Source: a virus
IMG/VR virus record: IMGVR_UViG_3300006919_000584
Coordinates: 1-20,949 of that record
Direction: 5' to 3' (one strand)
Length of the DNA stretch: 20,949 nucleotides
Under the pieces are notes generated by a model, which saw only the letters and a program-made list of their open reading frames with translations, searched no databases and was not told where the DNA came from. Position 1 is the stretch's first letter; every line of letters begins with the position of its first letter. The position numbers and the translations under genes are program-made. Positions 1,832-20,949 of the stretch are shown here, in pieces.

Positions 1832-2776
1832 ATGGACTTACTCAATCTATCACAACCATGGGATTGTCAAAGATTTCCTAAATCTAAAACCATCTGCTAT
1901 GGAGGAGGAGGTGGTGGTGGAGGTGCTCCAAAACTAGAAATGAAAGGTTTAGATCTTACTAAAAGTACAGGAGCTTTAAGCCCAAAAGGAGTTAAAGCAA
2001 TTACATCCAGTTTAAAAGCAGCTGGAGGTGGTGCTGCATATACTGCTGCTGTAGATAAAATGAATAAAGAAACAGATAAACGGTTAGGTTTAGGAAAATA
2101 TAAAAAGAAAAGTGGAGGATTACTTGGATCTGGAATATCCATATCTCCACCTAAAATTAAATTACCAAAATCTATTAAAGACACATCTTTAGGTAATGCA
2201 GCCAATGAAGTTAAGAAATTAGGAGATGGTGACTTTAGCCTAAAGAAAGCAGTACAGGGAACTGCATCTGGTGCAGAAAGCACTATTAAGAAATCTGATT
2301 TAGGAAAGGTCGTTAAAAAAGTTGCAGATCAATCGGGTTACACAGGATCTGATATAGATACAGGAATGCAGAAGATAGAAAAAGAATCTTCTAATGTGGT
2401 CAACCAAACCTTAGATGCTGTTGATAATCCGACAAAGGTTATTAACGATGCTGTTGATAGAGCTAAAAACTTTGGTGCTGAAACCGCAGGAGAAGTAAAA
2501 GATGCTTTTGGAGCTTACGAAACTGCAGGAAAAAACATTGAAACTACTGGACAGAACATTGTTGGTGCATTCGAAGACACGTTTCAGACAGGAATGAATG
2601 CAGCTTCTGCATTAGGACAAAACTTAGCTAATCAACTAGGTACAGCATCTGGAGACAAAGGTGGTCTCAAAGGCAAAGCAAACATTGCTGATTTACTAGA
2701 ACAAAAGAGAAAAGGCAGAAGAGGTGGCCTTAGTAGATCAGGTACTTCAAGAACTCTTATTACAGGAAAAGTCTAA
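1832..2776 (+). CDS. Unknown low-complexity virion-region protein with poly-Gly start
   Basis: I do not recognise a function. The 314 residues hold eight consecutive glycines near the N-terminus (residues 24-31), then a Gly/Ala/Lys/Ser-rich body that looks helical or disordered from about 120 to 270, and a basic C-terminus ending GRRGGLSRSGTSRTLITGKV. No membrane segment or catalytic motif is visible. It starts 8 nt after the terminase stop and its own stop shares a base with the next start (TAATG). Position between terminase and portal suggests a minor head or packaging component; this is inference from gene order. The first 20 or so residues do not resemble the rest. Initiation nearer the Gly tract, at the in-frame ATC at 1892, would give a protein beginning MCYGGGG, but no ribosome binding site supports it. 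Confidence 0.8.
   Translation: MDLLNLSQPWDCQRFPKSKTICYGGGGGGGGAPKLEMKGLDLTKSTGALSPKGVKAITSSLKAAGGGAAYTAAVDKMNKETDKRLGLGKYKKKSGGLLGSGISISPPKIKLPKSIKDTSLGNAANEVKKLGDGDFSLKKAVQGTASGAESTIKKSDLGKVVKKVADQSGYTGSDIDTGMQKIEKESSNVVNQTLDAVDNPTKVINDAVDRAKNFGAETAGEVKDAFGAYETAGKNIETTGQNIVGAFEDTFQTGMNAASALGQNLANQLGTASGDKGGLKGKANIADLLEQKRKGRRGGLSRSGTSRTLITGKV
1901..1924 (+). repeat. Poly-glycine codon tract
   Basis: Eight successive GGA/GGT codons encode an eight-glycine run in the gene between terminase and the 2776-3087 gene. GGA and GGT alternate in blocks, which is typical of a slippage-prone tract. Confidence 0.9.
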
Positions 2777-7497: not shown

Positions 7498-7641
7498 ATG
7501 AGTGAAGTAACTTTTTACGATGATGAAAACAAAGAGCAAACCGTAGTAGTCGATTCTAAAGAACATCAAGATTTAATAAATAAAGGATGGACTACATGGA
7601 AAAAACCATCTGTAAAAAAAACCACTAAGAAAAAATCTTAA
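7498..7641 (+). CDS. Unknown small protein, 47 residues, Lys-rich tail
   Basis: This short ORF fills the gap between the terminator and tail tubular protein A. It begins MSEVTFYDDENKEQTVVVDS, has a central helix-like segment KEHQDLINKGWTTWKK and ends in a basic tail (KKTTKKKS). A ribosome binding site (AAAGGTG) precedes it, and its stop shares a base with the next ATG (TAATG), as at many other junctions in the window; both support translation. No function is recognised. The acidic-to-basic charge split suggests that it binds nucleic acid or an acidic partner, but that is only inference. It could also act mainly as a translated leader for the tail genes. Confidence 0.68.
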   Translation: MSEVTFYDDENKEQTVVVDSKEHQDLINKGWTTWKKPSVKKTTKKKS

Positions 7642-8279
7642 TGGCAACGGCAATTCAGATATCAAATATTGCGTTAAACAATATTGGTGATGGAACAATA
7701 ACGTCTTTTGACGATCCTAATGCTAGAGCTAGGGCTTGTAAATTAAGATTTGAAGACGTTAGGGATGCTGTCCTTCGTGCTCATCCTTGGAATTGTATGA
7801 CAGGAAGAACAACATTATCTCAGAGTGCTAGTTATACTCCTCCATTTGAATATGACTATGCCTATGTTCTGGATAATACCATTGTTCTAAGAGTCTTAAA
7901 TCTTTATGAAAGTGACGTTTTTGATTATCCATTCAAGGTAGAAGGTCAGTTTCTTCTTACCAATGCAACTACTGCAAAAATCAAATACATCAAAAGACCG
8001 ACAAGTATAGACGATACTCAAGACTTTGATGCACAACTGGTTCAAGCAATAGCAATGTCTTTGGCATCTGAAATTGCTATGGACCTTACAGGTCAAGCAC
8101 AGATTAGAGATCTTATGCTTGGTAAGTATCAGCAAGTGCTATCAGAAGCTAGAAGTATTGATGCTCAAGTTGGTACTGCAGATGTTATTGAATCTAATGA
8201 ATGGGTTGAGTCAAGGACGCGAACTTATTCTGGTAACTTCAAACCATTCTCTGCTTCTACTGCTAACGGCGTAGTATGA
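7641..8279 (+). CDS. Tail tubular protein A (T7 gp11-like adaptor)
   Basis: This protein forms the ring that attaches to the portal and starts the short tail. At 212 residues it is close to T7 gp11 (196). The hallmark segment is AVLRAHPWNCMTGRTTLS (43-60), preceded by an N-terminal ALNNIGDGTITSFDDPNARA stretch and followed by helix-rich sequence (about 129-175) containing ALAMSL-type hydrophobic helices (AIAMSLASEIAMDL). It begins at a TAATG overlap with the 47-residue ORF and overlaps the tail tubular B start by 4 nt (ATGA). No strong ribosome binding site is visible, so coupling to the small ORF is likely. Confidence 0.93.
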   Translation: MATAIQISNIALNNIGDGTITSFDDPNARARACKLRFEDVRDAVLRAHPWNCMTGRTTLSQSASYTPPFEYDYAYVLDNTIVLRVLNLYESDVFDYPFKVEGQFLLTNATTAKIKYIKRPTSIDDTQDFDAQLVQAIAMSLASEIAMDLTGQAQIRDLMLGKYQQVLSEARSIDAQVGTADVIESNEWVESRTRTYSGNFKPFSASTANGVV

Positions 8280-11200
8280 GAGTAACCCAAACTCAAACAA
8301 ACTTCTGGGGTGGACAGATTGCTGTCAAATCTCAGGGATTTGTTGATGAGGAACTGTATTCTAAATCTGCATCAGAGCTAACAAACTTTGTTGTTACTCC
8401 GAATGGTGGATTAGCAAGAAGACCAGGAACTCAGTTTGTTGCTAGATCAAAGCCTAATGCACTAGGTGTTGGCAATGAAGCATCTGCTGTAAAGCTCATA
8501 CCATTTACCATTGGATTTGGCAGTGATAACAACTACGTTTTAGAATTTGGAGTTGCTTCTCAAACTGTTACTGCAAGTAATAATTCAGGTGATTTATTAT
8601 TAACTTTCACATCAGCTCCATTTTTAAATACAGATAATATCTTAGTTAATATATCAACAACTGACACTTTGCCTGGGGGTTTATCTGCTAATACTGATTA
8701 TTATTTAAAAAGACAAAGTGATACAACTTACGAAATAGGCACCAACACAGGGCTTTCTGTTATAAGTTGGTCTAATGCTGGTACTGGCACACACACTATA
8801 ACTTATGGCTATGTCAGGTTTTATAAGAACAAAACACAATTATTAGATTCTGGTAATCCTTATCAAATAGACACACCATTTATTACAAATGCTAAAGTAA
8901 ATGCATTAGAATACATACAGTCGGCATCATTTCTATTTTTAGTTAGTCCAGATGTTCATCCGCATCAATTGGTTTATGATGCAACAAATGAAACCAATTG
9001 GACATTATCAGAAATATCATTTTTTGATGGACCTTACTTTAACTCACAAGAATTAGCAGATGGAACTGCAGTAGATACAACGATTTCCATAACTTCTGGT
9101 ACTGCAACTTTACCATCAGGAATAAACCAAACAGGTTGGGTTGGTGAATGTGATAATGCTTATTATTGGTCTAATACTGGAGATCAAATCCCACAACCTA
9201 CAGATAATCTTCAGACCTTTTCCTATTTACAGAACAAAAACCATGGTCTTCAAGATGGAATGAAGATCAATGTATCAGGAATAACATCTGAAGTTTCTGT
9301 ATCTGCATCTTCACCACAAACAGTTTCTAGTGTAACCAATTTTCAAGCTTCTCAAACACATACAGGTATAAATCCTGATCAAACAAGCGGTACAGGTAAT
9401 TTAAGCACTTTAGAAGCAAAAATTGTTACAGACGGTAATGGAACACCAACTATAACCATTACAACAATGGGAACTGGATTCGATCCAGGTGATACAATTA
9501 GATTTACAGATCCTGGATCTACATCAAACACAGCGACAATCACATTATCTTCTGCATTTCCGTCAAATGGTGATTATTTTGCGACACAATGTACGGCAAA
9601 CACATTTAAAATCACACAATCAGTTGGTGGAGCACCAGTAGACTTTGGACATAACCAAAAACCTACTGTAAAAGCTTATTTTTACCGCAAAAACAGCAGT
9701 ATTACACTAACACAATCTGCATCTGGCATTTGGACTGATACTGCAACGGATGCTGGTCGATTATTCAGGATTAATACACTAGGAAACGAACAGATTTATT
9801 GGGGTCATGTAGAAATACAGTCAATTTCTTCAAATAATGCTGTATGTACTGCAAAAACAGACATCCCTCAGTCTTATACTTCTAATTTAAGAGATTGGAA
9901 ACTAGGACAATGGTATACAGGCAACTATCCGCATTTTGTCACTCTATTTCAGCAAAGATTGGTATTTGCTAGAGTCGATCATAGTCCACAAACTGTATTC
10001 TTCTCTCAAACCAACGATTTCTACAATTTTGGACCTTCAGAATCGTTAGGATCGGCTACAGGACAAACAACTGCATCAGGAGCATCTATCATAGGTGAAC
10101 AGGTATTATCGTTCAATGCCATGACGTTTACGTTTGATTCTGGAACGGTTGATGAGATTCAGTTTCTTATACCACAAGAAAAACTCTTAGCAGGAACAAC
10201 TGGTGGTATCTATGCAGTCTATGGATCTGAACAAGATCTAACTATTACACCAACGAATTTTACAATCAGAAGAGAAGGTACTCAGCCTGCAGAAAAAACA
10301 GTCAATGCTGTTGCAGTCGATGAGAATGTTATCTATGTCGAAGGATCAGGGGTCAAAGTACGTTTAGTCAACTTTGGAAATGTCTCTTCTGCAGCTAAAT
10401 CTTTTGATGTCACTATCCGTTCTAACGATATTTTAGATGATAAGGGAAAACAGATTATCTCTACTGCTATACCAAACTATGCCAATTGGATTCGAGATGG
10501 ATCAGGAGCAATTAGCTGTGTTACATACATTCCTCAGAACTCCATTGTTGCATGGCATAGGCACAAAATTGGTGGATCTTACGAATATTCCAATACGAGA
10601 GGAGGTGATCCTACAGGATATCTAACAACAGATCAGACTCATGGTGTTGTTGTGGATATGGCAACAATTCCTTATGAAGATCAAGACCAGTTATGGATGT
10701 TGGTTAGAAGAACCATACCAACAGCAGATGGATCTAATTCTCATACTATTATAGAGACTATTGAGGTTCTAGAAGATTGGATGCAGGAAGAAGCAATAGA
10801 TGCATCTCGATTTATGGATGGTCATGTAGTCGCATCTAATGGAACGACTGTAACTGGATTAGGACACTTAGAAGGATTATCAGTAAAGATGTTAGGTGAT
10901 GGTGCTCAGTTAGATGATAAAACAGTATCTTCAGCAACTGCTGATTCAGGAGCATCTTCTAATTTTACAACCTTAGTTGCAGGACTAGGTTATCAATCCA
11001 AGCTTGTTACTTTACCAGTAGCAGTTGGACCTGGAGGTAATGTCAGGATTGGTAACAAGAAAAGATTGCATCGAGCATGGGTTAAATTACATAGAACACC
11101 AAACATCAAATACGGAGTTTATCCTGCTTCAGAAGCAGATAATACAATCTCTGAACTTGTCACAAGAACAGTATCTGACAATTACGGAGATCCACCTACG

Positions 11201-11335
11201 TTATTAACTGGAGTCGAAGAACTTGTGCCTATCAGCCAAGGGTTTACAGATGCACAGTTTCAAATCCAAATGGACGATTCCTTACCAGTAAACATTCTTG
11301 CCCTAGAACTGGACTACGAAACCAATGATAACTGA
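8276..11335 (+). CDS. Tail tubular protein B (T7 gp12-like nozzle), enlarged
   Basis: This builds the tail nozzle below the adaptor and is likely to carry tail-fibre contacts. The N-terminus TQTNFWGGQIAVKSQGFVDE and NGGLARRPGTQFVA (43-56) are typical of the family. So is the core block LGQWYTGNYPHFVTLFQQRL (544-563), followed by FARVDHSPQTVFFS. At 1019 residues it is larger than T7 gp12 (794). Two beta-rich insertions account for much of this. One (about residues 94-177) sits between NYVLEFG and YVRFYKNKTQLL, which would normally be close together. The other (about 320-464) contains a further nested segment. The start overlaps tail tubular A (ATGA) and the end overlaps the next gene by 11 nt. 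Confidence 0.92.
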   Translation: MRVTQTQTNFWGGQIAVKSQGFVDEELYSKSASELTNFVVTPNGGLARRPGTQFVARSKPNALGVGNEASAVKLIPFTIGFGSDNNYVLEFGVASQTVTASNNSGDLLLTFTSAPFLNTDNILVNISTTDTLPGGLSANTDYYLKRQSDTTYEIGTNTGLSVISWSNAGTGTHTITYGYVRFYKNKTQLLDSGNPYQIDTPFITNAKVNALEYIQSASFLFLVSPDVHPHQLVYDATNETNWTLSEISFFDGPYFNSQELADGTAVDTTISITSGTATLPSGINQTGWVGECDNAYYWSNTGDQIPQPTDNLQTFSYLQNKNHGLQDGMKINVSGITSEVSVSASSPQTVSSVTNFQASQTHTGINPDQTSGTGNLSTLEAKIVTDGNGTPTITITTMGTGFDPGDTIRFTDPGSTSNTATITLSSAFPSNGDYFATQCTANTFKITQSVGGAPVDFGHNQKPTVKAYFYRKNSSITLTQSASGIWTDTATDAGRLFRINTLGNEQIYWGHVEIQSISSNNAVCTAKTDIPQSYTSNLRDWKLGQWYTGNYPHFVTLFQQRLVFARVDHSPQTVFFSQTNDFYNFGPSESLGSATGQTTASGASIIGEQVLSFNAMTFTFDSGTVDEIQFLIPQEKLLAGTTGGIYAVYGSEQDLTITPTNFTIRREGTQPAEKTVNAVAVDENVIYVEGSGVKVRLVNFGNVSSAAKSFDVTIRSNDILDDKGKQIISTAIPNYANWIRDGSGAISCVTYIPQNSIVAWHRHKIGGSYEYSNTRGGDPTGYLTTDQTHGVVVDMATIPYEDQDQLWMLVRRTIPTADGSNSHTIIETIEVLEDWMQEEAIDASRFMDGHVVASNGTTVTGLGHLEGLSVKMLGDGAQLDDKTVSSATADSGASSNFTTLVAGLGYQSKLVTLPVAVGPGGNVRIGNKKRLHRAWVKLHRTPNIKYGVYPASEADNTISELVTRTVSDNYGDPPTLLTGVEELVPISQGFTDAQFQIQMDDSLPVNILALELDYETNDN
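8555..8806 (+). other. Inserted beta-module 1 in tail tubular protein B
   Basis: This encodes residues about 94-177. The pattern TLPGGLSANTDYYLKRQ, TTYEIGTNTGL and SNAGTGTHTI is a module I recognise as recurring in phage tail proteins. It interrupts the core between two family-conserved strands. Confidence 0.6.
9233..9667 (+). other. Inserted beta-module 2 with nested insertion in tail tubular protein B
   Basis: This encodes residues about 320-464. It opens with NHGLQDGMKINVSG and closes with GDYFATQCTANTFKITQSVG, the same strand pattern as module 1. Between them lies a Ser/Thr/Gly-rich stretch (about 341-428) with GTGFDPGDTIRF, which looks like a separate domain placed inside the module. 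Confidence 0.5.
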
Positions 11336-11696
11336 CGTACAGGTTTGGCCCATAACTGATGATATGGACCTAGAAGAAGTAAAACATGCAGGACTTAGTG
11401 ATGGTGATAAACATCTTATTGCACCTACTCATTTTGTAACCAAAGAAGGACAAGTTATTGGTGCATTCTGTTTGACAAGCCCAACAGTCTATTGGTGGAT
11501 GCATTCTCAAAAAGCATCTATGAAAGACTCGTTATTAGCATATCAATCATTGGATGCGTTAATGAGACACAACCGCATTGATCGTTACATTATGCCCTGT
11601 GAACCAACTTCTCCTTATTACAAATTATTAAATAACCGATGCAATGTTCTTAAATCTGCAGACGGTCAAGATTGGACTCTTTTTGTAAATAAATAA
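11325..11696 (+). CDS. Small protein at the T7 gp13 position, function unknown
   Basis: This 123-residue protein lies between tail tubular B and the gp14-like gene, where T7 has gp13 (138 residues, needed for virion assembly). The sequence has alternating strands and helices (GQVIGAFCLTSPTVYWW, then a helix near 85-105) and ends PTSPYYKLLNNRCNVLK and TLFVNK. The pattern is loosely like a GNAT acetyltransferase fold with a late SPYYKLLNN segment, but I cannot identify an acetyl-CoA binding loop, so I do not assign enzymatic activity. It overlaps the preceding gene by 11 nt and the following one by a single base (TAATG). Confidence 0.75.
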   Translation: MITDVQVWPITDDMDLEEVKHAGLSDGDKHLIAPTHFVTKEGQVIGAFCLTSPTVYWWMHSQKASMKDSLLAYQSLDALMRHNRIDRYIMPCEPTSPYYKLLNNRCNVLKSADGQDWTLFVNK

Positions 11697-12247
11697 TGGC
11701 ATTACCAGCAATTATAGCAGGAGCAGCAGTTATAGGTGGTGCTCTTAGCATGTATGGAAAAAATCGTGAGATTTCAGCCCGAAGAGATTCATTAAAAAGA
11801 CAAGCAGAACTTGCTCGTCGAAATGGGATAAATGCTAGAACAGGATTCTATGCACAAGGTAATCGGTTTGCCTTATCTGCAGAGTTGGAAACTGGTCGAA
11901 TGGCAAGATCTCATGCACAAAGAATAGGATCAATGAGATCATCAATTGGAGGTTCTGGAGCAGTAGCAGATTCTGGAACAACATGGGATGTGATCATTGC
12001 TCAAGATACTGAAAATCAAGCAGAGATGAATGCTTTTAGGAATCAGGTGGAATCACGTACACAAGACTTCTTTGATCAAGGACAAGCACAATATCTGTCT
12101 TATATGAATCAATCAAAAGCATTGCTTGACAGTTCTATTCAATTAGAAAGAAGTCGTAACGAACAATTATTTTTGTCAGGGCTGCAAGGTGCAGCTAGTT
12201 TTGGATCTATGGGAGCATCAGGTGGTTCAGCATTAGGATACACATGA
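11696..12247 (+). CDS. Internal virion protein B-like (T7 gp14 type)
   Basis: The first of the ejected internal core proteins; in T7, gp14 enters the outer membrane during infection. This 183-residue protein (T7 gp14 has 196) starts with a hydrophobic segment LPAIIAGAAVIGGALSMYG (3-21) that can insert in a membrane. A long basic and then Ala/Glu-rich helical region follows. The segment SIGGSGAVADSGTTWDVI (about 82-99) is similar to the equivalent region of gp14-type proteins. The C-terminus is Gly/Ser-rich. Neighbours on both sides fit the T7 order gp12-13-14-15. The start is a one-base overlap (TAATG) and the end a 4-nt overlap (ATGA). Confidence 0.78.
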   Translation: MALPAIIAGAAVIGGALSMYGKNREISARRDSLKRQAELARRNGINARTGFYAQGNRFALSAELETGRMARSHAQRIGSMRSSIGGSGAVADSGTTWDVIIAQDTENQAEMNAFRNQVESRTQDFFDQGQAQYLSYMNQSKALLDSSIQLERSRNEQLFLSGLQGAASFGSMGASGGSALGYT

Positions 12248-13965
12248 GACTAAATTTTCAACAACAACGAGCTGTAAATCCATCTGCAGGACCAAATTTA
12301 TTTGTTCCTGAAAGCGGTCAAGGCATTCAAAACGAAGAAAAGCTTAGACTTCAGCTTATTAAACAACAGCAGGATGCTCTTAATGATGTAGCTCAAGCTG
12401 CAGTTGTTATTGCTAAAGCTAATCAACAAGCAAAAGATGCAGACTTTAAAGCAGACTTTGCAGATCTTAGAGTAAAGTTAAACTCTGTTGGGAATCAAAT
12501 TAGCGATGGTTATGAGTCAAACCAAGAATTTAATATAAGTCATTTATCTTTAGAAACTGACGAAAACGGGAAACCAAATAAAAAATATACATTTGTAATG
12601 CCTACTAATAAAGCAGGGCATTTTGGTTATTCGCAAGTAGACAGTAATAAAGAACAGGTTGCAGCTTGGTTACAAAAAACAGTTCTTCAAGATTTTGGAG
12701 ATGCTGATGATAAATATATCCGTGCTGTTAAGCGTGAAGTCAATTTTACAATTGAAAACGCATTTTCATCTGCAAAAAAATCTTCGTTACGTCATACCAA
12801 AAATCATTTGACAGCAAAGGTTAATGAAGAAAATGAGCTTGTTGCAGGAGAAATAAGCAGAACCAAAGATCTAAACTATATTAGTCAGATAGTTGGTAAA
12901 CGATACGATGATATTGAAAGAGATTTAGAAGGAACATTTAGTCCTGTAGATATTGCATCTAAACAATCTAAGTTCTTAGAAAACTCAGTTACAGAATTGG
13001 CATATCGTTTAACTGGTGCAGATTCGTCACCAGAAGATAAACAGATGTACCAGACAATGTATAAAGAAGCTATGAAAGGCGATGGATTGTTTCAAAATGT
13101 AGATCCATTGTTTTTACAAAGACTTCACAGAGATGCTGGCAGCAGAGTTTTTAATCTAGAACGATCTGATGAAATTGCAGCAGCAAAATACGCATTGCAA
13201 TATGATGCAGAAAACTTTTTTGTAGCAGGAAGTGTTGAGATTGTTCCTAAAGAAGTTGATGGAACAATTAAAATGTCTTGGAAGAAAAGACAGATAAAAA
13301 ATGCAGATGGTAATCTAATAGATGATCCAAACTGGTCTTCTTCCTACAAGTCTTTATTTCCTAAACTTACAGATAACGATATTACGACTCTTTTAAATCA
13401 GGGTATTAAAGAAATAGAGAAGGAAGCTAACGATAAATTTAAAACAACAGTATTTGATGGAACTGCTAGGTCTGATTTCAATGTTTTATTAAGAGATTAT
13501 ATTTCTTATTGGCAAGAAGCATGGACTACAGATTCTAATGGACTACGAAAAACCAACTCTTTACCTCCATCACCACCTTGGCTAAATACAAAGTTTAAAG
13601 GTGAAGAATGGGAAAAATACAGAAATAATCTGTTAAAACTAGATTCTGTTTACAGGGGTGCAGATGCAGCATACATGTTGGCTAAAAATCCTGATAGTAG
13701 TGCAGAAGATATTCAACAGGTTTTAGATGACCTAAAAGTAAAAGCAGAATCTATCCCAACTTATAGTGAAGGTATTAGAAAATCTGCCTTAGACTTTCTT
13801 AATAGCGTAAGTCCGTATTTTCAAAAACAGATCAAACGCATTAATAATGTCTTAAACACAGGTGAAAATAACGTCAACAGAATATGTGAAAGCAAAGGAA
13901 TTGATCCAAGCAGTTTTGAATGTTTGGTAGAAGGTTTTAAAGCACAGAAAACTAAGAGCAAATAA
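12244..13965 (+). CDS. Probable internal virion protein (T7 gp15 position)
   Basis: A 573-residue, largely helical and hydrophilic protein without a signal peptide or membrane segment. The N-terminus (about 30-90) is rich in Gln, Ala and Lys and probably forms a coiled coil (LIKQQQDALNDVAQAAVVIA and on to DADFKADFADLRVKL). Its position after the gp14-like gene matches T7 gp15, a periplasmic channel component, although gp15 has 747 residues. I see no lytic transglycosylase motif. It ends TAA TAATG, with two stop codons just before the next start. The internal virion role is inferred from order, size and coiled-coil character. Confidence 0.7.
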   Translation: MRLNFQQQRAVNPSAGPNLFVPESGQGIQNEEKLRLQLIKQQQDALNDVAQAAVVIAKANQQAKDADFKADFADLRVKLNSVGNQISDGYESNQEFNISHLSLETDENGKPNKKYTFVMPTNKAGHFGYSQVDSNKEQVAAWLQKTVLQDFGDADDKYIRAVKREVNFTIENAFSSAKKSSLRHTKNHLTAKVNEENELVAGEISRTKDLNYISQIVGKRYDDIERDLEGTFSPVDIASKQSKFLENSVTELAYRLTGADSSPEDKQMYQTMYKEAMKGDGLFQNVDPLFLQRLHRDAGSRVFNLERSDEIAAAKYALQYDAENFFVAGSVEIVPKEVDGTIKMSWKKRQIKNADGNLIDDPNWSSSYKSLFPKLTDNDITTLLNQGIKEIEKEANDKFKTTVFDGTARSDFNVLLRDYISYWQEAWTTDSNGLRKTNSLPPSPPWLNTKFKGEEWEKYRNNLLKLDSVYRGADAAYMLAKNPDSSAEDIQQVLDDLKVKAESIPTYSEGIRKSALDFLNSVSPYFQKQIKRINNVLNTGENNVNRICESKGIDPSSFECLVEGFKAQKTKSK

Positions 13966-13967
13966 TA

Positions 13968-15437
13968 ATGACTGAAATTGTAGGTAGAGATAATCCTTTT
14001 ACTCCGCAAATGCGGAAAGTATTAAAAGGTATGGACCCTTTTACAAGGAATCAGTTTTTAGATAATGCTATAAAAGCAGCTGGTGCTGGATATAAAGAAA
14101 AATCCAATGCAATAAGGAATCTTCTTACTGATGACACTTATACTGGTGAAGACATGCTTTATCAGTATATAGGCCAATCTTCAGCAGAAGTTCCTATTAC
14201 TCGATACACAAGAAAAGAAGAAACAGGCATATCTGAACCATATACAGAACATGTAAAAGTTGAGATTCCAGGTTTAGACTCAGAAACATATCAAGCTATG
14301 GGTGAGATATGGGATGCTTCTAAAAATGAATATGCTCAAAAGATATTTGGTTCTGATACAAAAACATTTAACGATGTTGAAGCCCAGATCCAAGATGAAT
14401 GGAATAACTACTCATCTGCATTTAACAATACCAAAATAAACTTGAGTGCAAGAGATGGGTTTTTTAAAGCAGGATATTATTTTTACGGCAGAGCAAATGC
14501 AGCAGGGAAATCTTTCAGCGCATCTGAAGTTTCTAAAGAACTGTTTACTAATTCATATTATGTAGGTGAATCACCAGGGAATCCCCTTATTAAAATAATG
14601 ATTCCTAAAGTAGCATTGTCACCATTTGGCTCATATGACGATGAGCAAGTATTTTTTGGTTTAAATATGCTCAGAGAAAATGTTGACAAATACATCAGTA
14701 GTAAAATTTTAGATAAAATTGCTACAGATAAAGGTGGGAATATAAAGATATATCTTAAACCATCTATCACCAATGACGGATTAGCAATTTACAGCACAAA
14801 CAAAAACATAGATGGATCAGATACAAGGCAAGGTGTTATACCATGGGAAACTGTTGCTTCATATGTCACGTTTGAGAACAAAATGGCAATGCTCCATGAT
14901 TTTGATTACATCTTTGCATCAAATGATTATCAGGATTTTGTTGAAGAAATAAAAGAGTTTGAAGAACAGGCATTTGATGATGGTCAGAATATAGCACTCA
15001 CACGAAGTCTCTTTGAAATAAGTCCTACTTTTGCAAAAGGATTGGATCAAACTTTAGCAAAGAAAATGTTTGATAAAACAAGTTTGCTAGATCCTGCATT
15101 TGAGATGAATGCATCTTTTAATTTTTTAAGAGGATTTTTTTACAATCAAACAGAAATAGGTCTTATTGAACGTGATGTTATTGTTGAAGTACTCAAACAA
15201 ATTACTCCAGAGTCTTCTAGCGATGAAATACGTGAAGTGTTAAATACAGTAAGATCAAAAGAAGTAGCAAAGATTGTGTCAGCATTAGACGATATAGATT
15301 TATTGTCAGATGGATTGATAAAATTTTGGAAAAAAGAACTAGAACCGAGAGCAAAGATGCTTGGGTTTGATGAAGATTTTAGAGAAGCACAAAGTGAAAC
15401 CAATCAAAATTTAGCACCATTTGTAGGATCTGAATAA
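13968..15437 (+). CDS. Unknown probable internal virion protein
   Basis: This is a 489-residue, mostly hydrophilic protein that I do not recognise. It begins MTEIVGRDNPFTPQMRKVLK, has a helical N-terminal part (to about 60), a mixed region with several aromatic strands (about 160-330) and a helical, acidic C-terminus ending NLAPFVGSE. No membrane segment, cysteine cluster or catalytic signature is visible. It lies between the gp15-position and gp16-position proteins and is joined to the next gene by TAATG. It may be the second part of a gp15-type function, or an extra core protein. Function is not assigned beyond a likely virion role. Confidence 0.65.
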   Translation: MTEIVGRDNPFTPQMRKVLKGMDPFTRNQFLDNAIKAAGAGYKEKSNAIRNLLTDDTYTGEDMLYQYIGQSSAEVPITRYTRKEETGISEPYTEHVKVEIPGLDSETYQAMGEIWDASKNEYAQKIFGSDTKTFNDVEAQIQDEWNNYSSAFNNTKINLSARDGFFKAGYYFYGRANAAGKSFSASEVSKELFTNSYYVGESPGNPLIKIMIPKVALSPFGSYDDEQVFFGLNMLRENVDKYISSKILDKIATDKGGNIKIYLKPSITNDGLAIYSTNKNIDGSDTRQGVIPWETVASYVTFENKMAMLHDFDYIFASNDYQDFVEEIKEFEEQAFDDGQNIALTRSLFEISPTFAKGLDQTLAKKMFDKTSLLDPAFEMNASFNFLRGFFYNQTEIGLIERDVIVEVLKQITPESSSDEIREVLNTVRSKEVAKIVSALDDIDLLSDGLIKFWKKELEPRAKMLGFDEDFREAQSETNQNLAPFVGSE

Positions 15438-16792
15438 TGATTGTAGAACCAGATATAACCTACGACCCCAATATTGTAACTGAAGGAAACATACGTGCTT
15501 ACACGCCTTCATTACCTACATTATTTAAAGAATCTGCATTATATGCATTTAGAACAACATGGTGGCAGGAATCATTAGATGAACTAGAGTTTAACTTAGC
15601 TAACGAAGGTAACACTTTTACAAAAGAAGAATACGATAATAGTCCTTTTCAGCGTAGTGGTATTCAGCATTTTGAAGGAATGACAGAAGAACAAGCACGT
15701 ATTCTTGCTGAAAACTTTGATAGAAATCAATACTACGGACAACTTACAAAGAATGTATCTTTTTTTAATCCTGGCATGTTTGGAGGTTTAGTTGCTGGTT
15801 CTATCGTTGATCCTCTTAATTTTATTCCATACTACGGAATAGCAAAATTAGCAGTAAAAGCTAAAAGCACTTATAAACGTCTTAAACAGGCCAACAATGC
15901 AATTAGATCTAAACCTGCACAAGGACCATTGGGACAAAACATTATCTCAGTAGTAGATCCAATGATTGGCGCAGGAGTAGCAAATTATGTTGTTAAAGAT
16001 AAAAGAGCAAAGTTTCAAGAACAGCATGATCTACGAATGGTATTAGCTGATATTGCTATAGGTGCTGGTATTGGTGGATCTATTGTTGGTGTAAGAACAT
16101 TACGCAATAGAATGAATCGAGCATCAACCGAAACTCATATGAATCGATTGGCTCAAGCTTTAGATCAATTAGAAGAAGGAAAGCCTATTGATCTAAAACC
16201 TCATCCTACCAAAGGTCTTAACTACGAAAAGTTTGAACAACCCACAACTTTATCAGAATCAACAAGAGCTACAGTCAACGCAGCAATCAAAGTTGATGAT
16301 GATATGTTTTTAGAAATACTAGACCTTGGTATTACAGGAGATGGTGCATTAACACCTAATGAAGCATTAGCTGAAATATTGGAAAAAGCTGAAGCTGAAG
16401 GTTATTCAGGTGTAGCAATACCAGAAGAATTTTTAAGAAATAATGAAAATCTTTTCAGCGATGTGTTTCTTAGCAAATACAGTATGGAAGTGAAGAATAT
16501 AGATGGTGGCAATGGCAAACAGGTTGTTGTTATTAAAGATATACAAAACCAGGAATTACGATGGGACACAGTAGATCCTAATGAAAAATTTGAATACGTT
16601 GAACAAGATGGACAAGCTCAAACATTACAGCAAAGAATTGCAGAAGGTGTTCTCGCATTTACAAGCTTACCTCAAAAAGCTCTTAAACGACTTAAAGACA
16701 TTGAAACTAAGGCAAAGCAAGCAAACGAAAAATTGAACGTCATGAAAAACGCAGTACGTGATGCTGGAAGATGTGTGATTAGCAATGGCTAG
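15437..16792 (+). CDS. Probable internal virion protein, N-terminal gp16-like part
   Basis: A 451-residue protein with two hydrophobic or amphipathic segments: FFNPGMFGGLVAGSIVDPLN at 109-128 continuing to FIPYYGIAKLAV, and MVLADIAIGAGIGGSIVGVR at 201-220. These fit a protein that enters the cell membrane during DNA ejection. The rest is helical and hydrophilic, with a Gln/Lys-rich coiled-coil-like C-terminus (about 395-440). The end, GRCVISNG, overlaps the next gene by 8 nt in another frame (ATGGCTAG). Together with that gene it makes 1252 residues, close to T7 gp16 (1318), so the pair may correspond to one gp16-type protein. No transglycosylase motif is visible in the N-terminal part. Confidence 0.68.
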   Translation: MIVEPDITYDPNIVTEGNIRAYTPSLPTLFKESALYAFRTTWWQESLDELEFNLANEGNTFTKEEYDNSPFQRSGIQHFEGMTEEQARILAENFDRNQYYGQLTKNVSFFNPGMFGGLVAGSIVDPLNFIPYYGIAKLAVKAKSTYKRLKQANNAIRSKPAQGPLGQNIISVVDPMIGAGVANYVVKDKRAKFQEQHDLRMVLADIAIGAGIGGSIVGVRTLRNRMNRASTETHMNRLAQALDQLEEGKPIDLKPHPTKGLNYEKFEQPTTLSESTRATVNAAIKVDDDMFLEILDLGITGDGALTPNEALAEILEKAEAEGYSGVAIPEEFLRNNENLFSDVFLSKYSMEVKNIDGGNGKQVVVIKDIQNQELRWDTVDPNEKFEYVEQDGQAQTLQQRIAEGVLAFTSLPQKALKRLKDIETKAKQANEKLNVMKNAVRDAGRCVISNG

Positions 16793-19190
16793 AACAGGAA
16801 AACTAGATCCATGTTCTAACATGCTTGTTGAAGAGCATGGTATGGATGCTGATGCTGCACAACAGCTAATTAATGATCTTAAAAAAGGGGGTTCTCCTGA
16901 AAAGATTCTAGATGCTGCTGAACGTAGAGCAACAATCCTAGACTTTGAAGCACAACAAGCTCAGAACGCTCCACAGTTAATGCAGTATGCTTTTGAAACT
17001 GCTTATAACTTTGTTAGTCAAGCAACAGATAAATCAGAAGCACTTACACGTTTAAAAGCATTACTTACAGGATCTACTAAAGAAGGTGAAGGTTTTCTTA
17101 ATTCAGTTGGTGCTGCACAGGAAACTAGAACATCTTTAATGCATGGCAGAATCATTACGTCATTCCTTAATGAAACAGGATTGTCTAGAACGCAGATGCA
17201 TAAACTCCTGCGTAACAAAAAGTTTCAGGAAGATGTTGTAAGAGAACGCTTTCCTTTTAATAAAAAAAGCAAAACAGGAAATAAGGAAGCCCACGCATTT
17301 GCAAAGATTGTTGAGCTAGAGAATCAAAGACTTGTTAAAGAAGCAAATGCTGCTGGTGCTGCAATTATTTACAATGACCAATTTGTAACATCCCAATACC
17401 ACAATCCTACAAATATCAAACAAGCAGGGTTTAATGATTGGTTAAACACCATTATGCCTTTGCTTGACAAAGATAAAACCTTTGATGGATTTGGTGCTCC
17501 AGAAGGTGATGTTGGTATTCTTAGAAAGATTTACCAAAACATTATAGAACCTGGATCTGGTGGTGATGGACTAGCAATGAATGAAGCATTGTCAGCCTCG
17601 CGCCGATTGCATTTTAAAGATGCAGATTCCTGGTTGCAGTATAACAAACGCTTTGGTCATGAAGATCCTGTTCAAGCAATGGTTGAAGGATTGGAACTTC
17701 AAAGCGATAGAACTGTTCTTATACAAAGATTAGGACCAGACCCCTCAGAGACCCTTGACAATCTTAAAAAACAGATTAAACAAGATTATGGTCTTACAGA
17801 TAAAGACTTCGACATAGAAGGTGTTAATACTAGAATTGATCTGGTTACAGGAGACTTTTTTATACCTGGAGATCCTAAACTTGTAAAAGTAGTTGCTGGT
17901 CTACAAAACTGGACCATTATTACAAGTATGGGCAAAGCAATGCTTTCGTCATTCAGCGATCCGTTATTGCAAGCAATGACAATGCATTACCAAGGAAAGT
18001 CTTTCTTTTCTGCATATTTTGATACCTTCAGAAACCTAAAACGATCATTTACTAGAGAACTTGGCATTGATGAAAAAGATGCATTCAAGTTATTAGGTAT
18101 TGGCATCGATGGTGTTCTTACATCTTCATCTTCTCGTTACGTAGCATCTGATAAAACATCAGGTACATTAAGCCGATTGGCAGACAAGATGTTTATGTAT
18201 AACGGTCTAAATTACTGGACTAATGCCAATAGAGAAGGTTTTGCTAGAATGGCATCTGCATTCATGGGTGATCAAGCATCAACTCCATGGAATAAACTAA
18301 CTGAAAACTACAGAAGAATATTAAGTCAGTATGATATAACAGAGAAAGATTGGAGTCTTATCAACAAGATAGGAGCCAAAGACATTACTGATGAAGTAAA
18401 AAGATTAGGTCTGGAGTTTGACATCTATGCGAATGAAAGATACGTTACACCTGATCATATAAGAAAGTCTTCTAGGTCAAAACAAGCACAAACAGTTGCT
18501 GACAAACTAGAGATTTTCTTTGTTAATGAGTCAAGGATTGCTGTTCCTCAACCAGGAAAAAATGAAAAAGCAATCATGTCCTTTGGTTTTAAAAGAGGGA
18601 CAGTTCCTGGCGCATTAGCAGAAGCATTCTGGTTACTCAGAAGCTTCCCATTGACTATGGCTATTCAGCAATATCCAAGGATGATGCAGAATGGCATAGG
18701 AAATACGATGATGCATTTAAGTCCTGCAATTATGCTAGGATATGCATCTATCACCGCAAAGGATCTCATCAGAGGGAAAGAGCCAAGAGATCCTTTCGAT
18801 ACTTCTACCGCAGCCGCTTCCTTAATACAATCTGGTGTTGCAGGAATTGCTGGAGATTTAATCTACAACAGTTTCTCAGATCACGGATACAGTTGGCCTG
18901 AATTTATAGGCGGTCCTGTATTTGGCTATGGTGCTGATGCCGTAAAGATTTTTAAAGGCATTACTAATGGAGAAGCAGATGCAGCAAGAGCATGGAAATC
19001 AGTTAAAGATAATCTGCCTTTTGCCAATCTGTTTTATCTAGAACCAGCAGTCAACTACGGATTTCTGTATCAAATTCAAGATTACGTAAACCCTGGATAC
19101 TTAGGAAGAATGGAAAACGCTATCAAGAATCTTGAAGGACAAGATTATATGGAAGTGTTTAGACCAAGTGCTGTGGTAGGAGGATATTAA
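16785..19190 (+). CDS. Large internal virion protein, gp16-like C-terminal part
   Basis: An 801-residue protein of a type I associate with the end of the internal virion gene set in many podoviruses. Recognisable parts are ASRRLHFKDADSWLQYNKRF (about 270-290), followed by an aromatic and Gly-rich middle. A late segment reads FFVNESRIAVPQPG, GFKRGTVPGALAEAFWLLRS, then FPLTMAIQQYPRM, with hydrophobic stretches afterwards (HLSPAIMLGYASI; AASLIQSGVAGIAGDLIY). These suggest membrane contact. The N-terminus DPCSNMLVEEHGMDADAAQQ continues naturally from the end of the previous protein. The start at 16785 has no good ribosome binding site (GGAAGA lies 14 bases upstream), so coupling to the upstream gene is likely. 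It contains a strong ribosome binding site for the tail fibre near its own end. Confidence 0.75.
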   Translation: MARTGKLDPCSNMLVEEHGMDADAAQQLINDLKKGGSPEKILDAAERRATILDFEAQQAQNAPQLMQYAFETAYNFVSQATDKSEALTRLKALLTGSTKEGEGFLNSVGAAQETRTSLMHGRIITSFLNETGLSRTQMHKLLRNKKFQEDVVRERFPFNKKSKTGNKEAHAFAKIVELENQRLVKEANAAGAAIIYNDQFVTSQYHNPTNIKQAGFNDWLNTIMPLLDKDKTFDGFGAPEGDVGILRKIYQNIIEPGSGGDGLAMNEALSASRRLHFKDADSWLQYNKRFGHEDPVQAMVEGLELQSDRTVLIQRLGPDPSETLDNLKKQIKQDYGLTDKDFDIEGVNTRIDLVTGDFFIPGDPKLVKVVAGLQNWTIITSMGKAMLSSFSDPLLQAMTMHYQGKSFFSAYFDTFRNLKRSFTRELGIDEKDAFKLLGIGIDGVLTSSSSRYVASDKTSGTLSRLADKMFMYNGLNYWTNANREGFARMASAFMGDQASTPWNKLTENYRRILSQYDITEKDWSLINKIGAKDITDEVKRLGLEFDIYANERYVTPDHIRKSSRSKQAQTVADKLEIFFVNESRIAVPQPGKNEKAIMSFGFKRGTVPGALAEAFWLLRSFPLTMAIQQYPRMMQNGIGNTMMHLSPAIMLGYASITAKDLIRGKEPRDPFDTSTAAASLIQSGVAGIAGDLIYNSFSDHGYSWPEFIGGPVFGYGADAVKIFKGITNGEADAARAWKSVKDNLPFANLFYLEPAVNYGFLYQIQDYVNPGYLGRMENAIKNLEGQDYMEVFRPSAVVGGY
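19178..19183 (+). promoter_or_regulatory. Ribosome binding site of the tail fibre gene
   Basis: AGGAGG ends 6 bases before the ATG at 19190 and lies inside the end of the preceding gene. It is the best match to the consensus in the window. Confidence 0.82.
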
Positions 19191-20949
19191 TGACAGTAAC
19201 TGTAACAACCACTAGAAATTCATTTGCAGGAAACGGAAACCAAGGTCCACATTCCATTGGTTTTACCATCCTAGATGCAACTCATATCCAGGTTTATTGG
19301 GATAAAGGATCTTCATCACCAGGAACACCTACTGGTCTTTCTGCATCTGGTTATCTTACTAAAGATACTCATTACACAGTACAGAATGCAGGAACATCTT
19401 CTAATGCAACGATTACTTACATTGCAACAGGATGGACTGTTAGCTCAACAGTAACTTATCCACCGTCTGGTGATACGATTGTTGTTACACGTAATGTGGC
19501 ATTAACACAGGGATCTGATTACACCAACAACTCCACTATTGATGCAGAAACCATCGAGAATAGCTTTGATAAACTTACACAGATCACACAACAGCTTGAC
19601 GATGGTAAAGACTACTCAATTAAATTTGCATCGAATCTAGCAGGATCTACAGCTTTTAATTCAACTGCAGATACTGCAGGAACCATTACACAAAACAAAG
19701 CAGATCGAATCTCAAAGATATTAGCCTTTGATGGTAATGGAGATATTTCTGTAACACAGGAACTAGGAACTTATAGAGGTGATTGGGCAACTGGTCAAAA
19801 CTATGTTCTTAGAGATCTTGTCAAACAAAGCAGTGCATCTGATACAAATACCCAAAACAATGTTTACATTTGTACTACAGCACATGCTTCTACAGGTTCA
19901 TATCTTACACAAAACGATACATCAAACTGGACTCTAGTTCTTGAAGTAGCTGCTGCTCAAGCATCTGCAAATACTGCTACAACACAAGCAACTAACGCAG
20001 CAAACTCAGCTACTGCTGCAGCTAATTCTGCTACTGCATCTGCAAACTCTGCAACAACTGCAGGAAACGAAGCAACTACAGCAACAACTAAAGCTAGTGA
20101 AGCATCGACTTCAGCATCGAATGCTGCTAGTTCTGCAACTGCTGCTGCTACATCTGCAGCTAATGCTGCTGCTTCTTATGATTCTTTTGATGATCGTTAT
20201 CTTGGTACGTTTTCTTCAAACCCTACGCAAGATAATGATGGTAACGCACTTGTAACAGGTGCGTTGTATTTTAATACATCTGATGGGGAAATGAAGGTTT
20301 ACGATGGTACAAACTGGATCGCCGCATCAGCCGCACAAAATGTAACTGTCGAAGACTACACTTATACTCTTTCGGGATCTGATGCCACAATTTCAGGATC
20401 CGATGACAATTCCGCTTCATTAAGTTTTTCTAACCAGGAATCAGTTGATGTCTTTCTGAATGGAGTCAAGCTTGTTCCTAAGATTGGAGGGACAGCAAAC
20501 GACTACCATTTAGATACTGCGAACACAGTAACGCTTACTGCTACTGCGGTTTCGGGTGATGTGATTCTCGTCAGAGTTTACAAAACTTTTACAGTTGGCG
20601 ATGCCGTTCCTGCGAGTACGGGTGGGACCTTCTCTGGGAATGTTGCTTACACAGGGAATATCCAGGTTGATGATATTATTGAGAAGACTTCAGCGCATGG
20701 AGTAGAGATCGATGGTGTTCTTTTAAAAGATGGTGGTGGTACTTTTACTGGAGATGTTACTTTTTCGGATAATAACATACTTGGTGTCGGTGACATCGCA
20801 GTAGATACCATTTCTTCTGATGATGCAAATGATATAAGAGTGACTTTAGGAACTAATGCTGATTGTGATTTTAATGTAGGTACTGGGAAGTTGTTAGTAG
20901 AAGGTGACAATGGGAATATTCAATTTAGTGGTAACGGGACAGGAACAGA
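19190..20949 (+). CDS. Tail fibre protein, 3'-truncated
   Basis: The frame is open to the window end (586 codons visible). The N-terminus, with TTTRNSFAGNGNQ, FTILDATHIQVYW, SGDTIVVTRNVAL and AETIENSFDKLTQITQQLDD (to about residue 145), is the T7 gp17-type domain that attaches the fibre to the tail tube. A segment at about 195-247 (YRGDWATGQNYVLRDLV, NNVYICTTAHASTG, NWTLV) resembles chitin-binding CBM5/12 folds and may bind sugars. Residues 254-329 are an Ala/Ser/Thr/Asn repeat, probably a trimeric coiled coil. YFNTSDGEMKVYDGTNWIAA (360-379) is a common module in phage fibres. Then come a module with VDVFLNGVKLVP and a beta-rich part with IIEKTSAHGVEIDGVLLKDG. The receptor-binding tip is not in the window. 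Start is a TAATG overlap with a strong ribosome binding site. Codon use changes near base 20,326. Confidence 0.93.
   Translation, partial: MTVTVTTTRNSFAGNGNQGPHSIGFTILDATHIQVYWDKGSSSPGTPTGLSASGYLTKDTHYTVQNAGTSSNATITYIATGWTVSSTVTYPPSGDTIVVTRNVALTQGSDYTNNSTIDAETIENSFDKLTQITQQLDDGKDYSIKFASNLAGSTAFNSTADTAGTITQNKADRISKILAFDGNGDISVTQELGTYRGDWATGQNYVLRDLVKQSSASDTNTQNNVYICTTAHASTGSYLTQNDTSNWTLVLEVAAAQASANTATTQATNAANSATAAANSATASANSATTAGNEATTATTKASEASTSASNAASSATAAATSAANAAASYDSFDDRYLGTFSSNPTQDNDGNALVTGALYFNTSDGEMKVYDGTNWIAASAAQNVTVEDYTYTLSGSDATISGSDDNSASLSFSNQESVDVFLNGVKLVPKIGGTANDYHLDTANTVTLTATAVSGDVILVRVYKTFTVGDAVPASTGGTFSGNVAYTGNIQVDDIIEKTSAHGVEIDGVLLKDGGGTFTGDVTFSDNNILGVGDIAVDTISSDDANDIRVTLGTNADCDFNVGTGKLLVEGDNGNIQFSGNGTGT
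19949..20176 (+). repeat. Ala/Ser/Thr/Asn repeat region of the tail fibre
   Basis: The region encodes imperfect repeats of the type A-N-S-A-T-A (for example AANSATAAANSATASANSAT) over 76 residues, built from GCA/GCT, TCT, ACT and AAC codons. It separates the sugar-binding-like segment from the downstream fibre modules and is expected to be an elongated stalk. Confidence 0.85.

What the first reader, a model, noticed from the sequence alone, without database searches (positions are those of the whole stretch)
8555..9667. Tail nozzle protein with two related inserted domains, one carrying a domain inside it
Residues 94-177 split two core strands of the gp12 family. Residues 320-464 carry a similar strand pattern (TTYEIGTN versus NTFKITQS). 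The second copy is itself interrupted by a Ser/Thr/Gly-rich segment with GTGFDPGDTIRF. Such decorations on the nozzle surface could bind host sugars or extra fibres. The insertions are read from the sequence; the function is inference.
Basis: partly seen in the sequence, partly recalled or inferred. Interest (0 to 1): 0.5.

Follow-up and report, generated by a model that had tools for sequence, protein, structure and literature searches.

The report
Swappable, nested modules on phage nozzle
The tail-nozzle protein of this marine-type short-tailed phage carries two copies of a small barrel-shaped module that recurs in phage particle proteins, one of them with a further segment lodged in one of its loops, and close relatives gain, lose or swap these pieces, which suggests the DNA gate itself may help grip the host surface.

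Summary
Observation confirmed. The 1019-residue nozzle (8276-11335) belongs to the gp12/Carin-1 nozzle group. Residues 93-177 are an insert absent from Carin-1 and from five close relatives. Residues 313-471 are a second module of the same family: a profile of 144 copies from other nozzles and proteins hits module 1 (1.2e-14) and natural, uninterrupted module 2 (5.6e-19). Residues 336-424 are a nested segment missing from four relatives; it is not shown to be the same family.

The module also occurs in head-tail adaptors, fibre J and baseplate proteins. In 44 nozzles it sits in three zones (A 17, B 44, C 22). In five of them another copy of the module is nested in the same loop where the window has its insert. 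Segments are swapped: the nested one differs at dS 0.93 between two proteins whose residues 1-312 are 97-100% identical.

Closest characterised relative, by weak but converging evidence, is the sialic-acid-binding beta-barrel of phage endosialidases; the nested-insertion loop aligns with its S460-S468 loop, reported as part of the sugar site.

Best reading: exchangeable surface adhesion modules. Anatomy is well supported; glycan binding is inferred. Zone B looks like a standing part of the tip. New variant of a known kind.

The parts
8276..11335 (+). Tail nozzle protein, 1019 aa (gp12/Carin-1 nozzle group)
   Evidence: phrog_376 tail protein 2e-112; 8ck1_A nozzle phmmer 1.5e-36; model pLDDT 78.2, pTM 0.74; VIA Z 39.8, rmsd 2.3, 657 aligned to 8ck1_A and Z 25.9, 552 aligned to T7 9jyz_P
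8552..8806 (+). Module 1 (residues 93-177, zone A): insert between two core strands
   Evidence: no counterpart in 8ck1; absent from L001, L003, L012, L017, L015; 144-copy profile E 1.2e-14
9212..9280 (+). Module 2, first half (residues 313-335, zone B)
   Evidence: same profile on the natural insert-free module 2 of L013: 5.6e-19; alignments
9281..9547 (+). Nested segment (residues 336-424) with GTGFDPGDTIRF, in a loop of module 2; boundaries good to a few residues
   Evidence: missing from L013, L014, L015, L018; the viral-contig scan with it returned 14 loci, all on contigs of this nozzle clade; predicted beta strands; swapped between relatives
9548..9688 (+). Module 2, second half (residues 425-471)
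7641..8279 (+). Upstream tail-adaptor-like gene
   Evidence: phrog_394 tail protein 5.9e-47; gp11-type by position, inference
11696..12247 (+). Downstream gp14-like internal virion protein gene
   Evidence: phrog_418 internal virion protein 1.9e-6; Pfam T7_gp14 only 12.8 of 27 bits

Best explanation
The nozzle carries members of a phage-wide family of small beta-barrel-like modules that are inserted into many virion proteins. Two sit here: one between two strands near the start of the propeller (zone A) and one in the region of the distal tip (zone B). The loop between the second and third module strands is itself a place where further domains settle; here it holds a separate beta-strand segment, in other nozzles a second copy of the module. 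The modules most likely stand on the outside of the nozzle hexamer and give weak, many-fold contact with host surface glycans, as the related barrel of phage endosialidases does with polysialic acid, holding the nozzle on the envelope while the fibres trigger opening. Recombination between related phages swaps, adds and removes the cassettes. Shown: insertions, common family, nesting, exchange. Inferred: outside position, glycan binding, role in adsorption.
For: Family: 144-copy profile hits both modules; HMMs made from module 1 alone and from insert-free module 2 alone hit the same domains in L065, L019, L028 and L031. Zones in 44 nozzles: A 17, B 44, C 22. Self-nesting in L084, L115, L134, L136, L138 at profile positions 42-53; the window's insert starts at position 44/45 by the L013 alignment. 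Backbone tree: at least 6 changes in zone A, 6 in zone C, 4 in nested state. Exchange: window versus L011 dS 0.00-0.05 in residues 1-312 but 0.93 in the nested segment, where L011 and L003 are 98% identical. Virion proteins: of 20 non-nozzle carriers scanned, out of 47, 13 match head, tail or connector families. Sugar link: Pfam End_beta_barrel at E up to 0.1 in 7 of 45 modules, best 1.3e-4; top PDB profile match 4hiz endosialidase, E 0.013; best VIA match 3gvk endosialidase residues 436-506, Z 4.8; K1F endosialidase residues 437-489 best of 8 K1F proteins, 2.5e-4, next 0.37 (2.3e-4); the loop with S460 and S468, sugar-site residues in PMC12632334 (passages), aligns to the insertion loop.
Against: None of 20 virus records searched reaches the cut-off of End_beta_barrel (best 30.2 of 35 bits, in L116's record; no match in the window) or E1_FCCH (best 17.5 of 29.5); End_beta_barrel also rings in 4 of 14 control genomes at that loose limit. 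The second PDB profile match, an insecticidal crystal protein, is almost as good (E 0.028). Z 4.8 may mean only a common arrangement; Foldseek had no PDB match under E 0.001 for the module model. The clade's own HMMs A1 and A2 do not find the endosialidase, and the hhalign match covers 21 columns. In K1F the barrel was largely permissive to mutation (PMC12632334). Modules also sit on head-tail adaptors, so receptor contact cannot be their only use. In the window the presumed sugar loop is taken over by the nested segment. Position on the outside of the hexamer was not computed.
Confidence: 0.5

Rival explanations
1. The modules are structural: they wrap or clamp neighbouring nozzle subunits or docked fibres and stabilise or extend the tail, as the Ig-like nozzle domains of phage SU10 do.
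For: SU10 nozzle domains, inserted between propeller blades 2 and 3, contact neighbours and straighten to lengthen the tail (PMC9509320, passages). Zone B is occupied in 44 of 44 nozzles aligned, as expected of a structural part. Modules also occur in head-tail adaptors (3 of 20 proteins scanned).
Against: Zone A and C modules come and go between relatives, zone A between proteins 92% identical elsewhere; a clamp should co-vary with its partner surface. No co-variation test was made.
Confidence: 0.3
2. The modules are near-neutral, tolerated inserts: surface loops accept them, and they spread because phages recombine often, without a selected function.
For: Frequent gain and loss; nested copies of the module inside itself; occurrence in many kinds of virion protein.
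Against: Fold residues are kept across distant copies (H-G-L, Y-Y-V, N-T-F patterns). The carriers stay open frames, but the set was chosen as long ORFs, so that is no independent test.
Confidence: 0.15
3. The second module is not nested but is a tandem pair of half-degenerate modules: the nested segment supplies the first half of a second copy.
For: On the window the profile also aligns 387-473 as one copy (1.6e-11), using TITITTMGTGFDPGDTIRF as its first half.
Against: The segment alone is not significant; the relative L013 without it aligns continuously and better (4.7e-19). VIA rows of 60 aligned residues spanning 5-161 and others confined to about 31-119 are consistent with one outer barrel and a separate middle, but only end points are given and Z is under 5.
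Confidence: 0.15

Closest known systems
Tail nozzle of phage Carin 1 (PDB 8ck1) and T7 gp12
   Same: Whole-protein fold (Z 39.8 and 25.9) and order of adaptor-like and nozzle genes
   Different: 8ck1 has no residues matching 93-175; about 265 residues lie between query 270 and 535 where 8ck1 has about 141
Beta-barrel domain of phage endosialidases (Pfam PF12195; K1F gp17; PDB 3gvk, 4hiz)
   Same: HGL-x-x-GD strand pair; best structural and profile match; in K1F one of three polysialic acid sites lies in the barrel (PMC12632334, passages)
   Different: Below the family cut-off; the loop aligned with S460-S468 is taken over by a nested insert in the window
E1_FCCH domain (Pfam PF16190) in phage nozzles, e.g. 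Pelagibacter phage HTVC035P
   Same: HTVC035P nozzle has it nearby (residues 116-181, 40.1 bits); the module profile also takes it in (1.3e-9, raised if it entered that iteration)
   Different: The window scores 14.4 and 13.4 of 29.5 bits needed; the HTVC035P insert aligns about one hairpin further on
Ig-like nozzle domains of phage SU10
   Same: Extra beta domains inserted in a nozzle propeller, forming the tip (PMC9509320, passages)
   Different: Ig-like, four in a row, linked to tail extension; the modules here match a small barrel and are scattered in three zones

Membership tests
gp12-type tail nozzle | Sequence similarity to nozzle families | tested here: met
   phrog_376 2e-112; 8ck1 1.5e-36
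gp12-type tail nozzle | Whole-chain nozzle fold | tested here: met
   Z 39.8 to 8ck1_A, 25.9 to T7 9jyz_P
gp12-type tail nozzle | Hexamer below the adaptor | not testable with these tools
   gene order only
Pfam Phage_nozzle PF25675 | Score over curated cut-off | tested here: not met
   no match at E up to 1
Pfam E1_FCCH PF16190 | Score over curated cut-off | tested here: not met
   14.4 and 13.4 bits of 29.5
Pfam End_beta_barrel PF12195 | Score over curated cut-off of 35 bits | tested here: not met
   no match in the window; best of 20 records 30.2 bits
Endosialidase-type barrel | Same fold | tested here: inconclusive
   best VIA match 3gvk_A 436-506, Z 4.8, rmsd 2.8, 60 aligned
Endosialidase-type barrel | Glycan binding | not testable with these tools
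   needs a binding assay

The most novel reading that the evidence does not exclude
The DNA gate of these phages doubles as an exchangeable receptor-reading platform: sugar-binding barrels of the endosialidase type are plugged into three zones of the nozzle, and because the sugar-binding loop itself accepts further barrels, specificity is changed by nesting modules inside modules and by recombination of whole cassettes, independently of the tail fibres.
Probability: 0.22. Interest if true: 0.72.

Novelty: new variant of a known kind. Interest (0 to 1): 0.5.

Why it matters
Nozzles are usually described as conserved gates, with host recognition left to fibres and spikes. Here the gate carries a module family found across virion proteins, present or absent between phages whose nozzles are otherwise 92% identical, and the same loop is used for nested insertion in separate lineages. 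That gives natural with/without pairs to test what such inserts do, and a candidate route for diversifying one of the most conserved parts of short tails.

Tried and rejected
Direct comparison of the two modules gave nothing significant; only deeper sampling did. Module 1 profile against the nested segment: no relation. tblastn of the nested segment in 'phages': no match at E up to 1; PDB profile matches were integrin chains at E 0.36 or worse, taken as chance. NCBIfam: eight families, one member each. Pfam also listed 12 further families with one or two of 45 members each, taken as chance. Foldseek of residues 308-478: nothing under E 0.001 in the PDB; in viral models two matches under 0.001 without names, then mostly cyanophage structural and fibre proteins. 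No match is not taken as proof of a new fold. A profile search over the window's proteins found the module only in the nozzle. Literature: nine of ten searches used; their listings showed no paper on such modules in nozzles. A Carin-1 paper was tried under a DOI that I recalled, which is not held; that paper is recalled, not seen. The tree was the quick kind and warned of long branches meeting; its counts are minima on that tree. The 44 nozzles are the window and 43 of 50 non-redundant relatives, drawn from the loci fetched, 80 of the 449 relatives among them; L065, L108, L119, L127, L131, L135 and L137 were left out as near-copies, broken or partial. So the zone counts describe the nearer relatives. 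Alignment A7 took 43 of 46 listed copies plus two of this clade. In one search, 80 of 157 carriers were first sorted as non-nozzle; that figure holds re-fetched duplicates and nozzle pieces, and two of its 49 representatives are nozzle pieces, leaving 47.

Full report
What is there. The ORF at 8276-11335 encodes a 1019-residue protein between an adaptor-like tail gene and, one ORF further, a gp14-like internal virion gene. It matches phrog_376 (tail protein) at 2e-112 and the solved Carin-1 nozzle at 1.5e-36. Its AlphaFold model (44 sequences, pLDDT 78.2, pTM 0.74) aligns to that nozzle with Z 39.8 over 657 residues and to T7 gp12 with Z 25.9. The source is a 20,949-base virus record. Among named phages the best terminase and portal matches are Pelagibacter phages at 53.9% and 37.6% identity.

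Module 1 is a real insert. The Carin-1 alignment stops at query 92 and restarts at 176 with no chain residues between. Five of the relatives aligned lack it (L001, L003, L012, L017, L015); L001 is 92% identical over residues 171-1019 and 95% over 1-92. The predicted strands 87-103 and 173-184 run from the core into the module.

Module 2 carries a nested segment. Four relatives (L013, L014, L015, L018) have module 2 without residues 336-424. They are natural controls for the uninterrupted module.

The two modules are one family. Pairwise tests fail. HMMs from module 1 alone and from natural insert-free module 2 alone hit the same domains in third proteins: L065, L019, L028 and L031 (module 2 HMM: 2.5e-6 to 0.0026). 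A profile of 145 copies with this clade's module 1 and 2 copies removed gives 1.5e-14 for module 1 and 1.2e-18 for insert-free module 2. One of the 145, from L019, was a zone C copy on a clade contig; without it the values are 1.2e-14 and 5.6e-19, and reversed decoys of these modules reach 3.5 bits at most. The nested segment stays at 0.016 to 4.2, its reversed decoys at 0.15 to 12. The collection was seeded with module 1 of this clade, so the profile is not fully blind to it; the module 2 result is the more independent one.

Where modules sit. In 44 aligned nozzles (the window and 43 of 50 non-redundant relatives) hits fall in three zones: A between anchors 90 and 215 (17 of 44), B between 253 and 498 (44 of 44), C between 812 and 867 (22 of 44, L018 being truncated). 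Zone B should correspond to the tip insertion of T7-type nozzles by its position between propeller segments (T7 description: PMC6702177, passages); that mapping is inference. In SU10 blades 1-3 lie away from the axis (PMC9509320, passages), which fits an outside position for zones A and B; this was not computed here.

Nesting is recurrent. In L084, L115, L134, L136 and L138 the zone B module is split and a full second copy (1.5e-20 to 1.7e-26) lies in the gap. These splits fall at profile positions 42-53, and the window's insert starts at 44/45 by the L013 alignment: the loop between the second and third module strands. On the backbone tree self-nesting appears in three separate places and the GTGF insert once, at least four changes; zones A and C change at least six times each (quick tree with a long-branch warning).

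Exchange. Window versus L011: dS 0.00-0.05 over residues 1-312, 0.39 at 313-335, 0.93 in the nested segment, 0.55 just after it, 0.12 over the 214 further residues that L011 holds; L011 and L003 are 98% identical in the segment with dS 0.09. L011 is best read as a recombinant. Window versus L002: module 1 is 32% identical while the flanks are 88% and 72%. Module 1 is closer to a zone C module of the distant nozzle L028 (47% over 95 residues including a little flank) than to the zone A modules of L002 and L013 (30-33%).

What family it is. Of 45 members, 7 touch Pfam End_beta_barrel (best 1.3e-4) and 5 E1_FCCH (best 0.0023) at E up to 0.1. In 20 virus records searched whole, 8 match End_beta_barrel and 6 E1_FCCH at that limit, none over the cut-off; 4 and 2 of 14 control genomes ring too, one each over the cut-off. 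PHROG families with unknown, tail-fibre and baseplate labels are matched by up to 27 of 45. Outside nozzles, 47 non-redundant carriers remain (49 less two nozzle pieces). Of 20 scanned, 13 match head, tail or connector families (two of them, L200 and L197, only through tail-fibre families that the module alone also matches), one matches unknown families only, six match nothing at 1e-8. In cellular genomes the same kind of search gave 13 loci of 35 candidates, against 102 of 203 in viral contigs (the patterns differ by one residue, the collections in size).

The sugar link. Three lines point to the endosialidase barrel: Pfam, PDB profile search (4hiz, E 0.013, next an insecticidal crystal protein at 0.028) and structure (3gvk 436-506 first among 812 chains, Z 4.8; an EF-Tu barrel next at 4.2). 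In phage K1F the profile's best match among eight proteins is endosialidase residues 437-489 (2.5e-4; next 0.37); the clade-only HMMs A1 and A2 do not find it. PMC12632334 (a preprint; passages read) places S460, S468 and G504 in the barrel's sialic-acid site and calls the barrel site a discrimination hotspot, but also says that the barrel was largely permissive to mutation. The numbering fits the fetched sequence, and S460-S468 aligns to the insertion loop. Each line is weak alone, and the loop alignment is uncertain by a few residues.

Verdict. Anatomy and mosaic exchange are well supported; glycan adhesion is the leading but unproven function, with structural clamping the main rival. Domain mosaicism in receptor-binding proteins is established (PMC10684548, passages); what seems new is the same-loop nesting and the extent of exchange on a nozzle. 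The listings showed no held paper describing it.

Noticed in passing
window 8501-10000: GC falls to 0.326 at 8501-9000 against 0.408 just upstream and GC skew is negative from 8501 to 10000, in line with imported segments; but GC is nearly as low at 12501-15500, so it is no proof.
   Followed up: no
L065 610-4004; L094 2823-5660: Two relatives have a broken nozzle: L065 over two frames, L094 with an in-frame stop. Assembly error or natural break not decided, not mended. The L065 pieces together hold four modules.
   Followed up: partly
L012 and L019 (same contig): This clade member lacks the zone A module but has a zone C module that the window lacks, at 96.5% identity of the last 200 residues.
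   Followed up: partly
window 1832-2776: 314-aa protein between terminase and portal with an eight-glycine run, no PHROG match and only a sub-threshold HAMP match in Pfam.
   Followed up: no
window 11325-11696: 123-aa ORF directly after the nozzle without a family match; in Pelagibacter phage HTVC035P this place holds a gene annotated as putative acetyltransferase.
   Followed up: no
L159 2904-5843: A tail protein of another family (phrog_457) has two modules near its start.
   Followed up: partly
window 19190-20947: Tail-fibre gene cut by the record end, with a long alanine/serine/threonine-rich repeat stretch.
   Followed up: no
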